DNA of 64,000 bases, taken from positions 4,524,198 to 4,588,197 of the forward strand of contig NZ_AP023355.1 of assembly GCF_016865425.1 (NCBI RefSeq), written 5' to 3'. A program made the translations under genes and the position numbers. A model generated the notes under the pieces. The model did no database searches and was not told the DNA's origin. It was given only the letters and a program-made list of their open reading frames with translations. Below, piece after piece: positions 15,518-19,704 of this stretch; position 1 is the stretch's first letter; every line of letters starts with the position of its first letter. This DNA is from Actinocatenispora thailandica (GTDB lineage: Bacteria > Actinomycetota > Actinomycetes > Mycobacteriales > Micromonosporaceae).

Positions 15518-17311
15518 ATGCGACATCGACGTACGGTCGCGGCGCTCGCCACGGCATGTTGCCTGACCGGAGCCGTGCTGAGCGCCGCGGCCGCGCCGGC
15601 GGCCGCGGCGCCCAAGGACGTCACGCTGACCGTGCTCGGCACCAGCGACGTGCACGGCCACGCACTCGACTGGGACTACTACAAGGACAAGCCCTATTCC
15701 GACGCGGCCGGCAACTCGGTCGGGCTGGCGCGGGTGTCCACGGTCGTCGACCAGGTGCGCCGGCAGAACCCGAACACGCTGCTGGTCGACGACGGTGACG
15801 TCATCCAGGGCACCCCGCTCGACTCGTACTACGCGACGGTCGAGCCGATCACGAAGACCGGCGCCACGCATCCGATGGCCGCCGCGATGAACCAGATGGG
15901 CTACGTGGCCGGCGCGGTCGGCAACCACGAGTTCAACTACGGCGTCGACTATCTCGACGCGTACCGCAAGCAGCTCGACTTCCCGCTGCTCGCCGCGAAC
16001 GTCACCGACCACCGCACCGGCGCGCCGGCCTTCCAGCCGTACGTCATCCGTACCGTGAAGCCCGCGCACGGCGGCAAGCCGGTGCACGTCGGGTTCCTCG
16101 GCCTGACCACGCCCGGCTCGGCGATCTGGGACAAGCCCCGGGTTTCCGGCCGCCTCGACTTCACCGGCGTACTGGAGTCGGCGAAGCGCTGGGTGCCCCG
16201 GGTCCGGGCGGCCGGCGCCGACGTGGTCGTGGTGCTCGCGCACTCCGGCATCGAGACCAGCTCCTCGTACGGCGACGCGCTGCCCTGGCCGGAGAACGAC
16301 ATGCGCCAGGTCGCCCAGCAGGTACCGGGGATCGACGCGATCCTGTCCGGGCACACGCACCGGAACAACCCCGAGGTGGACGTCACCAACGAGCAGACCG
16401 GCCGCACGGTGGTCATCTCGCAGCCCGGACTGTGGGGCGAACGGGTCTCCCGGTTCGACCTGAAGCTCCGGCTGGTGCGCGGCCACTACCAGGTGGCGGG
16501 CGCCAGCTCGTCGCTGCTGGACCCGGCAGCCGCCCGGCCCGACCCGAAGGTGGTCGCGGCGACGAAGGCGCAGCACGCCACCACGGTGTCCTACGTCAAC
16601 TCGGTGATCGGGCAGTCCACTGCGGACATGCCGGCCGGGCCGTGCCGCTGGTCCGACTGTGCCGCACTGGATTTCATCAACCAGGTGCAGACCGCGACCG
16701 TCCGGAACGCGCTGACCGGTGACGAGGCCGAGCTGCCGGTGCTGTCGGCGGCGGCACCGTTCAACCGGGACGGCGGGATCACCGCGGGCGACGTGACGGT
16801 ACGCGACATCGCCGGCATCTACGAGTTCGACAACACGTTGCTCGGCATCGAGCTGACCGGCGCCCAGGTCAAGGCGTACCTGGAGAAGTCGGCGGAGTAC
16901 TTCAAGCAGGTGTCGGGTACCGGCCCCTACCCGGCCGACGACGTCACGAACGCGCCGACGACCGACTCCCCGAACGGCACCCCGGACTACCTGTACGACG
17001 TGCTGTCCGGCGTCAGGTACGACATCGACATCGCGAAGGCGCCCGGCAGCCGGATCGAGAACCTGGCGTACGACGGGAAGCCGGTCACCGACGACCAGCG
17101 GTTCGTGCTGGCGATCAACAACTACCGGCAGTCCGGCGGCGGGAACTTCCCCGGGGTCACCAGCGCACCGGTGGTGTACGACCAGCAGGTCGCGATCCGC
17201 GAGTCGCTGATCGACTGGGTGCAGCGGGCCGGCACCATCGACCCGTCGCAGTACTCGACAGACGACTGGAAGCTCGTCGCGAACGGCCAGCCGGTCCAGA
17301 TCACCGGCTGA
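15518..17311 (+). CDS. Secreted 5'-nucleotidase / bifunctional metallophosphatase
   Basis: A 597-residue exported phosphoesterase. A signal peptide covers about residues 1-35. The calcineurin-like metallophosphatase domain carries GTSDVHGH, DDGDVIQG, GNHEFNYG and SGHTHRN metal-binding motifs. A C-terminal 5'-nucleotidase domain contains NRDGGITAGDVTVRDI, which binds the nucleoside, and NYRQSGGGNFPG. It resembles 2',3'-cyclic phosphodiesterase/3'-nucleotidase and UshA-type enzymes that salvage extracellular nucleotides. The ATG at 15518 follows GGGAGGA and starts the signal peptide directly; a TTG nine codons upstream would extend through that site and is unlikely. Confidence 0.9.
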   Translation: MRHRRTVAALATACCLTGAVLSAAAAPAAAAPKDVTLTVLGTSDVHGHALDWDYYKDKPYSDAAGNSVGLARVSTVVDQVRRQNPNTLLVDDGDVIQGTPLDSYYATVEPITKTGATHPMAAAMNQMGYVAGAVGNHEFNYGVDYLDAYRKQLDFPLLAANVTDHRTGAPAFQPYVIRTVKPAHGGKPVHVGFLGLTTPGSAIWDKPRVSGRLDFTGVLESAKRWVPRVRAAGADVVVVLAHSGIETSSSYGDALPWPENDMRQVAQQVPGIDAILSGHTHRNNPEVDVTNEQTGRTVVISQPGLWGERVSRFDLKLRLVRGHYQVAGASSSLLDPAAARPDPKVVAATKAQHATTVSYVNSVIGQSTADMPAGPCRWSDCAALDFINQVQTATVRNALTGDEAELPVLSAAAPFNRDGGITAGDVTVRDIAGIYEFDNTLLGIELTGAQVKAYLEKSAEYFKQVSGTGPYPADDVTNAPTTDSPNGTPDYLYDVLSGVRYDIDIAKAPGSRIENLAYDGKPVTDDQRFVLAINNYRQSGGGNFPGVTSAPVVYDQQVAIRESLIDWVQRAGTIDPSQYSTDDWKLVANGQPVQITG

Positions 17312-17318
17312 ACCCGCG

Positions 17319-17350
17319 CCGGGCGGTGCGGCTCGTACCGCCCCGCCCGG
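17319..17350 (+). terminator. Hairpin after the 5'-nucleotidase gene
   Basis: Arms CCGGGCGG and CCGCCCGG extend inward to GCGG/CCGC through one mismatch, with a short loop. The hairpin begins 8 bases past the stop codon. It has no T-run, as is common in this high-GC sequence. Confidence 0.55.
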
Positions 17351-17406
17351 GTACCACGCGGCGGGCGCCCCCGCTGTCAGAAAACCGCGTGCGGCTAAAT
17401 CATGAA

Positions 17407-17434
17407 ATGACCGACATCGATCTTCACTTAGAGT
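17407..17434 (+). promoter_or_regulatory. Probable promoter of the CWWW leader RNA
   Basis: A -35-like ATGACC (17407-17412) and -10-like TAGAGT (17429-17434) are separated by 16 bases. They lie in a locally AT-rich stretch about 58 bases before the leader peptide start, giving a leader of roughly 50 bases. Confidence 0.45.
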
Positions 17435-17491
17435 AGGTTCGCAAGTACCGACGGTGACTTACCGCGGTACACCTCTCTCAAGGAGACGATC

Positions 17492-17551
17492 ATGCTGGCG
17501 ATCTTCACCGATGGTCTGGCCGTCATCATCAGCCACTGCTGGTGGTGGTAG
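17492..17551 (+). CDS. 19-residue leader peptide ending in Cys-Trp-Trp-Trp
   Basis: A short frame encoding MLAIFTDGLAVIISHCWWW begins with ATG five bases after a strong AAGGAGA site (17480-17486) and stops immediately after three Trp codons. Tandem Trp codons next to a GC-rich hairpin are the hallmark of ribosome-mediated trp-type attenuation leaders in actinobacteria. The Cys-Trp codon stretch GCTGGTGG (17538-17545) is exactly complementary to CCACCAGC (17586-17593) in the loop and 3' arm of the next hairpin. No tryptophan gene or any other plus-strand gene follows before the converging pgi, so the element is an orphan or controls a small RNA. It could instead be a secreted or arrest peptide. 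Confidence 0.6.
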   Translation: MLAIFTDGLAVIISHCWWW

Positions 17552-17574
17552 GCCGCTCCTGCACCGCAGCGCAC

Positions 17575-17603
17575 CGGGCGCCCGGCCACCAGCCGGGCGC
17601 CCG
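17575..17603 (+). terminator. Attenuator-like hairpin after the leader peptide
   Basis: Twelve paired bases, GGGCGCCCGGC (17576-17586) with GCCGGGCGCCC (17592-17602) plus one outer C-G pair, close a CACCA loop. It starts 24 bases after the leader stop. There is no T-run. Part of its 3' arm can pair instead with the leader's Trp codons. Confidence 0.65.
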
Positions 17604-17639
17604 ACGCATTCGTCCCGATCCATACCGTGCCGTACCCGC

Positions 17640-17661
17640 CTGCCGGTCCCGAGACCGGCAG
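17640..17661 (+). other. Short perfect hairpin in the leader transcript
   Basis: CTGCCGGTC and GACCGGCAG form a 9-bp stem with a CCGA loop between the two large GC hairpins, suggesting that the non-coding part of the leader transcript is structured. Confidence 0.5.
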
Positions 17662-17780
17662 ATCTTGCGGAAATCCACGGCAACGTGGGCGGTCCCGACG
17701 TAACGTCGAGTCAGACGGACGGAGTCGCGCTCCGCACGTCTACCCACACCCCGGTCGAGGGCCATCGGTCGGAGTGGCTG

Positions 17781-17809
17781 GGCGCCCGGCAGCCAGCCGG
17801 GCGCCTTTT
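17781..17809 (+). terminator. Second copy of the GC hairpin, with T-run
   Basis: GGCGCCCGGC and GCCGGGCGCC pair around an AGCCA loop and are followed by TTTT, a textbook intrinsic terminator in the plus direction. The stem is the same as that of the hairpin at 17575-17603. It defines a transcript of about 370 bases that carries only the leader peptide. Confidence 0.75.
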
Positions 17810-17873
17810 CGCACCCACGGCCCGCTCACCGGACCACCGGTCACCGGACCGCGGCCCGGTGACCGGACCGGCA

Positions 17874-19496
17874 CTAGCGGCCGCGCTGGGTGCGGTAGCG
17901 CGCGATCAGCGCCGCCGTCGACGGGTCGGTGTCGCCCGGCTCCCCGGCCAGCAACGGCGCGAGCTGCTTGGCCATCTCCTTGCCGAGCTCCACACCCCAC
18001 TGGTCGAACGAGTCGATGCCCCAGATGGTGCCCTCGGTGAACGTGATGTGCTCGTACAGCGCGACGAGCTGACCCAGCGTCGCCGGGGTCAGCTTCGGCG
18101 CCAGGATCGAGGTGGTCGGGTGGTTGCCCGGCATCACCTTGTGCGCCACCACGTCCGCCGCGACACCGGTGGCCTCGACCTCCGCGGCGGTACGGCCGAA
18201 GGCCAGCGCCGCGGTCTGCGCGAAGAAGTTCGCCATGAACGCGTCGTGCATCTCGTCGACCTCGTAGTTGGGCTCGGCGAACCCGATGAAGTCGGCCGGG
18301 ATGATCTTCGTGCCCTGGTGGATCAGCTGGTAGAACGCGTGCTGCCCGTTCGTGCCCGGCTCACCCCAGAACACCTCGCCGGTCTGGTACGTGACCGGGG
18401 CGCCGTCCCGGGTGACCGACTTGCCGTTCGACTCCATCGTCAGCTGCTGCAGGTACGCCGGGAACCGGTGCAGCAACTGGGAGTACGGCAGCACCGCGTG
18501 CGTCTGCGCGCCGAGGAAGTTGTCGTACCAGACGTTCAGCAGGCCGAGCAGGACCGGCACGTTCTGCCCGATCGGCGCGGTCCGGAAGTGCTCGTCCACC
18601 ACGTGGAAGCCGGCCAGCATCTCACCGAAGGCGTCGCGCCCGATCGCGAGCATCAGCGACAGCCCCACCGCCGAGTCGAACGAGTACCGCCCGCCGACCC
18701 AGTCCCAGAAGCCGAACATGTTGTCGGTGTCGATGCCGAACTCGCCGACCAGCTTCGCGTTGGTGCTCACCGCGACGAAGTGCTTCGCCACCGCCGCCGG
18801 GTCGTCGCCCAGCCCGGACAACAACCAGGCCCGCGCCTGCCGCGCGTTGGTCAGCGTCTCCAGCGTGGAGAACGTCTTCGAGGCGACCACGAACAGCGTC
18901 GACGCCGGATCCAGGTCGGCCAGCGTCAGGCTCAGGTCGGTCGGGTCGATGTTGGAGATGAAACGGCAGGCGATGCCGGCGTCCCGCCACGGCGCGAGCG
19001 CCTCGTACGCCATCACCGGGCCCAGATCCGAGCCACCGATGCCGATGTTGACCACGGTACGGATCGGGTCGCCGTGATGCCCGCGCCAGTCACCGGACCG
19101 GACCCGCTCGGCGAAGTCACCCATCCGGTCCAGCACCGCATGCACGTCGGCCACCACGTCCTGCCCGTCCACGACCAGTTCCGCGGAGCGCGGCAGCCGC
19201 AGCGCCGTGTGCAGCACGGCCCGATCCTCGGAGGTGTTGATGTGCTCACCGGCGAACATCGCCGCGATCCGGTCGGTCAACCCGGCCCGCCGCGCCAGCG
19301 CCGTCAGCAGCTCGATCGTCTCGTCGGTGACCAGGTTCTTGCTGTAGTCGACGAACAGGTCGCCAGCCTGTGCGGAAAGCCGCTCCGGTCGCTTCGGGTC
19401 CTGTTCGAACTCGGCTCGCAGCTGCAGCGCCCGCGCCTGCTCGGCGTGCGCCGCGAGGGCGCGCCACTCGTCGGTCGTGGTGATGTCCGTGCTCAT
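17874..19496 (-). CDS. pgi: Glucose-6-phosphate isomerase
   Basis: A 540-residue cytoplasmic enzyme interconverting glucose 6-phosphate and fructose 6-phosphate, close to the usual 545-550 residues. The phosphoglucose isomerase signature GIGGSDLGP is at 152-160; [16 protein letters not shown] and the C-terminal catalytic region [10 protein letters not shown] follow. The ATG at 19496 has GGAG eight bases upstream. The gene stands alone, with its 3' end facing the leader-peptide locus and a perfect long inverted repeat upstream of its promoter side. Confidence 0.96.
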
Positions 19497-19546
19497 CGAT
19501 CGCTCCAAGATCTCATCGACCGCTCCCCCGGCACCTCGCACCACGA

Positions 19547-19608
19547 TCCTTTGCTCTGCGCACCCAGGCGCACCACCGGTGGCACGCTCAGGTGCGCAGA
19601 GCAAAGGA
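19547..19608. repeat. 62-bp element with perfect 18-bp inverted repeats
   Basis: Left arm TCCTTTGCTCTGCGCACC (19547-19564) and right arm GGTGCGCAGAGCAAAGGA (19591-19608) are perfect complements. The 26-base centre holds its own palindrome CCACCGGTGG. It lies between the 5' end of pgi and the 3' end of the GNAT gene, both on the minus strand. It could terminate the GNAT transcript or be a dispersed palindromic element. Confidence 0.85.
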
Positions 19609-19704
19609 CGGAAACGACTGGTCGCCACCCCCGGGCCGCAACGCGTTCGGTACCGCAACATTCCGATCATGCCTCATCGACGACGCGGCCCGAACGCAAC
19701 GGGG

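What the first reader, a model, noticed from the sequence alone, without database searches (positions are those of the whole stretch)
17407..17809. Orphan leader RNA with a CWWW peptide and attenuator-like pairing
A well-placed promoter, an AAGGAGA site and a 19-codon frame ending Cys-Trp-Trp-Trp-stop are followed by a 12-bp GC hairpin. The Cys-Trp codons (17538-17545) are exactly complementary to bases 17586-17593 of that hairpin, so translation of the Trp codons could switch its folding. In known trp-type leaders an operon follows; here the transcript ends at a T-run hairpin and only antisense pgi lies beyond. It may be a stand-alone Trp- or Cys-sensing small RNA, an arrest peptide, or a remnant.
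Basis: partly seen in the sequence, partly recalled or inferred. Interest (0 to 1): 0.75.

Follow-up and report, generated by a model that had tools for sequence, protein, structure and literature searches.

The report
Stand-alone Trp-tailed mini-protein gene pair
The short reading frame ending in Cys-Trp-Trp-Trp looks like a real, conserved gene for a 19-residue greasy peptide that stands on its own, with a sister gene elsewhere in the same genome, rather than a leftover switch that senses tryptophan.

Summary
In detail: an SD, a 19-codon ORF (17492-17551, MLAIFTDGLAVIISHCWWW*), a 12-bp GC hairpin, a second hairpin with TTTT, then convergent pgi. The genome is an Actinocatenispora. Two of three congeners keep the ORF letter for letter; the third has a diverged homologue (MIAIFSHGFAFFLRSWWL*) at the same spot. 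Phytomonospora has MLVSIGLGITVIGGWYGWHCWWW* elsewhere. A profile search exposed a second locus in all four Actinocatenispora genomes (MLIGIGVGIAIIIGACPWW*), where the G002 orthologue differs by an in-frame codon and a swapped stop. At all nine loci the next gene is convergent; none leads an operon. The complement of the Trp codons shrinks to 5-6 nt at seven of the eight other loci, is matched in 58 of 2000 shuffles, and costs 18.7 kcal/mol to form. Best reading: a small family of stand-alone genes for 18-23 residue hydrophobic, Trp-tailed peptides, on structured mRNAs whose Shine-Dalgarno may be hidden in a mini-hairpin. Function (membrane peptide, toxin-like peptide, dual-function RNA) is inferred; so is translation. 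No Rfam match at gathering score; the two members long enough to scan have no Pfam match.

The parts
17407..17434 (+). promoter-like ATGACC-16 nt-TAGAGT (weak match to consensus)
   Evidence: sequence; 17411-17430 identical 20 of 20 in G000/G003/G001; scan requiring 9 of 12 found no promoter
17445..17470 (+). 5' UTR hairpin GUACCG...CGGUAC
   Evidence: fold of 17441-17491: z -3.51, 0 of 200 shuffles as good
17474..17486 (+). mini-hairpin UCUCU-CAA-GGAGA that would cover the Shine-Dalgarno
   Evidence: motif CACCTCT-N2-6-GGAG-N3-6-TCATG shared with G002 and Phytomonospora
17492..17551 (+). sORF MLAIFTDGLAVIISHCWWW*
   Evidence: homologues in G001, G003, G002, Phytomonospora and at sister locus B
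17575..17603 (+). 12-bp GC hairpin, 23 nt after the stop codon, no T-run
   Evidence: counterpart in G002; the motif GGCGCCCGG-N4-9-CCGGGCGCC occurs in G000 only here and at 17781-17805
17697..17809 (+). second conserved structured block ending in a near-copy of the hairpin (17781-17805) and TTTT; 3' part of the transcript or a separate small RNA
   Evidence: 18-20 of 20 identical per 20-base bin from 17711 to 17810; 96-97% in G001 and G003, absent beside G002's sORF; z -2.79 for 17690-17812
17874..19670 (-). pgi (phosphoglucose isomerase), convergent neighbour
   Evidence: PF00342 E 1.7e-206

Best explanation
17407-17809 is a stand-alone gene for a 19-residue peptide, hydrophobic in its first 14 residues and ending in a Trp-rich tail. 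It belongs to a small family: two loci (A beside pgi, B between an MR/MLE-type gene and a GH15 gene) in each of four Actinocatenispora genomes, and one in Phytomonospora. Shown by comparison: reading frame, start, hydrophobic character and Trp tail are kept; the genes sit singly before convergent genes, with a GC hairpin or structured RNA behind the stop codon. Inferred: the peptide is made, sits in or on the membrane with its Trp tail at the interface, and acts as a peptide; its translation is damped by the mini-hairpin over the SD; the structured 3' RNA stabilises or ends the transcript and may have a role of its own. The Trp run is part of the product, not a sensor read out by an operon.
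For: Locus A: G001 and G003 encode the identical peptide; G002's diverged homologue sits at the same place next to pgi; alignment of the two peptides is matched by 1 of 5000 shuffles, and by 2 of 5000 for the part before the last five residues. Phytomonospora: HCWWW* sORF with the same 5' motif. Locus B was found by a profile (A3) that did not contain it (E 0.15-0.25 per genome, full length 1-19); its G002 orthologue was then found at E 0.0018 by a profile that did not contain that sequence and lies behind the same MR/MLE-type gene. Within the locus B ORF the G002 orthologue has one 3-nt in-frame insertion and TAA for TGA, while the noncoding part behind it has a 12-nt deletion and a 20-nt insertion. 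Without the last five residues, Phytomonospora versus B_G000: 9 of 5000 shuffles; A versus B_G000: 71 of 5000. Next gene convergent at 9 of 9 loci. 5' UTR z -3.51.
Against: No transcript or translation data. The E-values of locus B against profile A3 are weak (0.15-0.25 for one genome, and 354 genomes were searched). The codon-substitution test of locus A against G002 is not significant (1900 of 20000 randomised cases as good, 1626 of 20000 without the ATG). Without the last five residues, A versus Phytomonospora (1191 of 5000) and A versus B_G002 (941 of 5000) are not significant; whole A_G002 against Phytomonospora (472), B_G002 (319) and B_G000 (89 of 5000) is weak. A and B show no shared 3' sequence that I could see. 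Zero changes in the locus A ORF among three genomes hints at constraint on the RNA too, although 10 of 553 and 31 of 570 pgi windows of 19 codons are also unchanged in the two pairwise comparisons. The family is tiny: 5 of 354 family genomes. Asp7 and His15 argue against a full transmembrane helix in A. SD pairing is easily predicted in GC-rich RNA and I ran no control for it; in G002's locus A the best fold pairs the SD with another partner.
Confidence: 0.55

Rival explanations
1. Dual-function or trans-acting RNA: the sORF transcript (about 370 nt at locus A if it runs from 17441 to 17809; length at B not determined) works mainly as a small RNA, with the short ORF as a translation-dependent control or second product, in the manner of attenuator-derived rnTrpL/peTrpL.
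For: Noncoding stretches behind both ORFs are about as conserved as the ORFs among three genomes and fold better than shuffles (z -2.79 at A; -3.29 and -1.90 at B); in the B terminator stem of G002 one A-U pair is replaced by G-C, though the next pair is lost (by eye).
Against: G002's locus A lacks the second block; no attenuator parent operon; no Rfam match at gathering score.
Confidence: 0.25
2. Type I toxin-like peptide: a small hydrophobic toxin whose mRNA is structured and SD-hidden, held down by an antisense RNA.
For: Length and hydrophobicity (GRAVY 0.93-2.0), two paralogues at intergenic sites, possible SD-covering hairpin, conserved untranslated parts.
Against: No antisense promoter identified (consensus scan only); fixed loci in four genomes rather than mobility; no Pfam match for two members.
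Confidence: 0.15
3. Ribosome-mediated trp/cys attenuator or its remnant.
For: Trp-rich short ORF followed by a GC hairpin; exact 8-nt complement in G000 and G001.
Against: Next gene convergent at 9 of 9 loci; complement not kept; costs 18.7 kcal/mol; Cys lost in G002.
Confidence: 0.05
4. Precursor of a modified or secreted signalling peptide whose core is the Cys/Trp tail.
For: Short Cys/Trp C-terminus in most members; very short RiPP precursors that escape annotation are in print, with an Actinocatenispora rupis P450 among the enzymes tested (PMC13417212: start of abstract, two passages).
Against: No P450, radical-SAM or transporter domain among six neighbouring proteins scanned (genes further out not scanned); Cys lost in G002.
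Confidence: 0.06
5. Conserved noncoding or terminator DNA in which the ORF is accidental.
For: Strong conservation covers noncoding bases as well; coding test for A not significant.
Against: In-frame insertion and stop swap at locus B; preserved ends and peptide similarity across loci with different flanks.
Confidence: 0.07

Closest known systems
trp-type ribosome-mediated attenuators of actinobacteria (recalled; e.g. Streptomyces trp genes and trpRS1)
   Same: short SD-led ORF with a Trp run followed by a GC hairpin
   Different: no regulated gene behind it at 9 of 9 loci, no conserved alternative pairing, the product itself is conserved, stop directly after the Trp run in most members
Sinorhizobium peTrpL / rnTrpL (PMC7298713: abstract and section list seen)
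   Same: short leader-type peptide and RNA that act away from an operon
   Different: peTrpL comes from a transcription attenuator; here no such parent exists
Polycysteine leaderless sORF attenuators of mycobacteria (title only, seen in the reference list of PMC9094748)
   Same: actinobacterial short ORF with a regulatory-looking residue run
   Different: those are leaderless and control an operon; here there is an SD, at most one Cys and no operon
Small hydrophobic type I toxins such as the Ibs class (recalled)
   Same: about 19 residues, hydrophobic, intergenic paralogues, structured mRNA
   Different: no antisense RNA or toxicity shown; Trp-rich tail; fixed loci

Membership tests
trp/cys ribosome-mediated attenuator | short leader ORF with a run of the regulatory codon | tested here: met
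   HCWWW* in A; WW kept in G002 and in locus B
trp/cys ribosome-mediated attenuator | mutually exclusive terminator and antiterminator involving the codon region, conserved in relatives | tested here: not met
   forced pairing 18.7 kcal/mol worse; complement 8, 8, 5, 6, 5 nt at A of G000, G001, G003, G002 and in Phytomonospora, and 6, 6, 6, 5 nt at B
trp/cys ribosome-mediated attenuator | co-directional regulated gene downstream | tested here: not met
   next gene convergent at 9 of 9 loci
rnTrpL/peTrpL-type trans-acting attenuator product | released from an attenuator in front of amino-acid genes | tested here: not met
   the neighbours scanned are 5'-nucleotidase, pgi, MR/MLE enzyme, GH15, helicase, acyltransferase
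rnTrpL/peTrpL-type trans-acting attenuator product | acts on trans targets | not testable with these tools
   no target data
type I toxin-antitoxin | small hydrophobic peptide | tested here: met
   18-23 aa, GRAVY 0.93-2.0
type I toxin-antitoxin | antisense RNA antitoxin | tested here: inconclusive
   no consensus promoter on either strand of 17300-17900; expression unknown
type I toxin-antitoxin | toxicity on over-expression | not testable with these tools
   needs experiment
RiPP precursor | modifying enzyme encoded nearby | tested here: not met
   six neighbouring proteins from three contexts scanned with Pfam, none a RiPP enzyme; genes further out not tested
any described RNA family | Rfam match at gathering score | tested here: not met
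   none in the window; lowest sub-threshold E 0.32 for 17311-17880

The most novel reading that the evidence does not exclude
A new family of peptide-plus-RNA genes: each unit makes an 18-23 residue membrane-seeking peptide with a Cys/Trp-rich tail from an mRNA whose SD is hidden and whose 3' half is a conserved regulatory RNA, so that peptide and RNA act together as a stress or envelope regulator that owes nothing to attenuation.
Probability: 0.25. Interest if true: 0.65.

Novelty: new variant of a known kind. Interest (0 to 1): 0.42.

Why it matters
It turns a suspected orphan attenuator into a testable small-protein family that ordinary annotation would probably miss, with two loci per genome in Actinocatenispora and orthologues that show which parts are under selection. 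It also warns that a Trp-rich short ORF plus a GC hairpin does not make an attenuator: the check is what follows it in relatives and whether the pairing is kept.

Tried and rejected
Attenuation in cis: rejected (next gene convergent at 9 of 9 loci, pairing not conserved, energetically poor). CAYTGYTGGTGGTGGTRR in 250 family genomes: 9 matched; 4 are the sORF (3 Actinocatenispora, 1 Phytomonospora), the other 5, read, look incidental. CWWW with GGAG and ATG before it in 394 class genomes: 3 matched, the own genome and 2 in another frame by eye. AIF...WW pattern in 354 family genomes: 5 matched; the sORF in the 4 Actinocatenispora genomes; one further genome and a second place in the own genome look incidental. 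5' motif in 354 family genomes: 32 places in 30 genomes; 30 places were read, 5 carry the sORF; 2 places had no locus and were not read. Profile A3 in 354 family genomes: 63 genomes at E 1 or better; 5 confident, all in the model or identical to it; 19 weaker places were read, 3 of them locus B. Profile A4 in 197 class genomes: 15 at E 0.2 or better, 14 besides the own; 7 of these 14 were read and none is an SD-led short ORF. Viral pattern scan: stopped at its limit with 120 stretches, no frame filter; not followed up, so it says nothing for or against. Block 17690-17812 in 61 genomes at E 1: all 61 'match' because the limit was loose; only the own genome, G001 and G003 match over most of the query, the other listed places being pieces of about 60 bases or less (the list was cut). 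Locus B 3' part in 18 genomes: the 4 Actinocatenispora genomes; other listed hits are short. Phage and plasmid tblastn with the 20-aa B peptide of G002: none. Pfam: none for the two members of at least 20 aa. NCBIfam: one sub-cutoff hit for the Phytomonospora peptide, PFE_CTERM, 16.7 against a cutoff of 24 bits, taken as a hydrophobic-helix coincidence; none for the other. Paper search for four peptide strings: 186 papers, 10 listed; the listed ones hold only 'cpww' and none of the other three strings; the remaining 176 were not seen, so I make no claim that the family is absent from print.

Full report
What is there. The sORF runs from 17492 to 17551 (MLAIFTDGLAVIISHCWWW*), preceded by AAGGAGA (17480-17486), with a 12-bp hairpin at 17575-17603 and a second hairpin plus TTTT at 17781-17809; pgi lies convergent beyond. 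The promoter is weak by consensus, but bases 17411-17430 are invariant in the own genome, G003 and G001. GCTGGTGG (17538-17545) and CCACCAGC (17586-17593) are exact complements; shuffles of the next 100 nt reach 8 nt in 58 of 2000 cases.

The genome and its relatives. Of the three other genomes held for the genus, G001 and G003 match the 441-bp query at 86-87% identity and G002 does not match at DNA level. In 20-base bins, 17451-17610 is 18-20 of 20 identical in G000/G003/G001, while 17311-17410 and 17811-17870 fall to 4-14 of 20. G002 has at the same spot, beside pgi, an 18-residue homologue, MIAIFSHGFAFFLRSWWL*, with one GGGCGCCCGG hairpin and without the second block. Upstream of G002's copy lies another gene (a 369-codon open frame; no DNA match to the window's part before pgi), so linkage is to pgi only.

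A second genus and a second locus. Phytomonospora endophytica (L013/L030, G028) encodes MLVSIGLGITVIGGWYGWHCWWW*, with the motif CACCTCT-N5-GGAG-N5-TCATG before it and a GC hairpin behind it, pointing away from a UvrD-type helicase and towards an acyltransferase. A profile of three peptides (A3), searched in 354 family genomes, gave five confident hits (members and identical copies) and, among weak ones (E 0.15-0.25), full-length short frames in G000, G001 and G003: MLIGIGVGIAIIIG[AT]CPWW*. A profile with two of these added found the G002 orthologue, not itself in the profile, at E 0.0018: MLIGIGVGIGLIIIGTCPWW*, behind the same MR/MLE-type gene. In G000, G001 and G003 locus B is convergent with a GH15 gene; in G002 another minus-strand ORF lies in between.

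Is it translated? At locus B the G002 orthologue differs within the ORF by point changes, one 3-nt insertion in frame and TAA for TGA, while the noncoding part just behind has a 12-nt deletion and a 20-nt insertion. Peptide similarity beats shuffles for A against G002 (1 of 5000), A against B_G000 (0 of 5000) and Phytomonospora against B_G000 (0 of 5000); with the last five residues removed, A-G002 (2), Phytomonospora-B_G000 (9) and A-B_G000 (71 of 5000) remain, A-Phytomonospora does not (1191 of 5000), and G002's A peptide is only weakly similar to the others. A substitution test of A against G002 alone is not significant (1900 of 20000). I regard translation as likely and unproven.

Why not an attenuator. 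At all nine loci (A in four genomes, B in four, one in Phytomonospora) the next gene is convergent. The longest complement of the last five codons within the next 100 nt is 8 nt in G000 and G001, 5 in G003, 6 in G002, 5 in Phytomonospora and 6, 6, 6, 5 at locus B. Forcing the pairing costs 18.7 kcal/mol against the free fold. The Cys is not kept in G002's locus A.

RNA features. The 5' UTR 17441-17491 folds better than all 200 shuffles (z -3.51), with a stem at 17445-17470 and a 5-bp mini-hairpin over the SD (17474-17486). The SD is predicted paired in all seven leaders folded, though with another partner in G002's locus A; there was no control for this. Behind the ORFs the RNA is structured: z -2.79 for 17690-17812, -3.29 for B in G000, -1.90 for B in G002. 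The GGCGCCCGG-N4-9-CCGGGCGCC hairpin occurs in G000 and G003 only at locus A, twice each, and in G002 at three places including locus A (G001 not searched), so this exact hairpin is not a common terminator there; the two copies at locus A look like a local duplication.

Verdict. The peptide, not the switch, is what is conserved. I commit to a stand-alone gene family for hydrophobic, Trp-tailed peptides of 18-23 residues, with a dual-function RNA as the strongest rival and a type I toxin next. Distribution is narrow: 5 of 354 family genomes, and nothing further recognised in class samples of 394 (CWWW pattern only) and 197 genomes (7 of 14 outside hits read). Papers seen: PMC7298713 (abstract and section list), PMC13417212 and PMC9094748 (passages), the others as search listings with the starts of abstracts.

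Noticed in passing
17697-17809: Second block as conserved as the ORF in three genomes of the genus, highly structured, ending in a near-copy of the first hairpin plus TTTT; absent beside G002's copy. Could be a separate small RNA.
   Followed up: partly
17575-17603 and 17781-17805: The hairpin GGCGCCCGG-N4-9-CCGGGCGCC exists in this genome only at these two places, which suggests a local duplication around an inserted stretch.
   Followed up: partly
L253-L259 (Phytomonospora G028, contigs C5, C6, C7, C20): Dispersed near-identical repeats containing GGCGTCTTGGGTTCCCGGT[GC]TTGGTGG; they caused weak false hits of the peptide profile.
   Followed up: no
L060, L063, L064, L070, L072, L076: ORFs beginning MRQNP[NH]RGRVYRCCACRDS in several Micromonosporaceae share an inverted repeat (ggtagaggtg...CACCTCTACC; interrupted in L063) that overlaps their Shine-Dalgarno, possibly an SD-hiding hairpin. 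They look like integrases by eye; no domain search was made.
   Followed up: no
L075 and L078 (Micromonosporaceae): A 40-residue ORF (MSGRRLGRL.GSLLLF.ALAGVAVVDSG...IWM) behind the same leader motif appears in two genomes; perhaps another small membrane protein.
   Followed up: no
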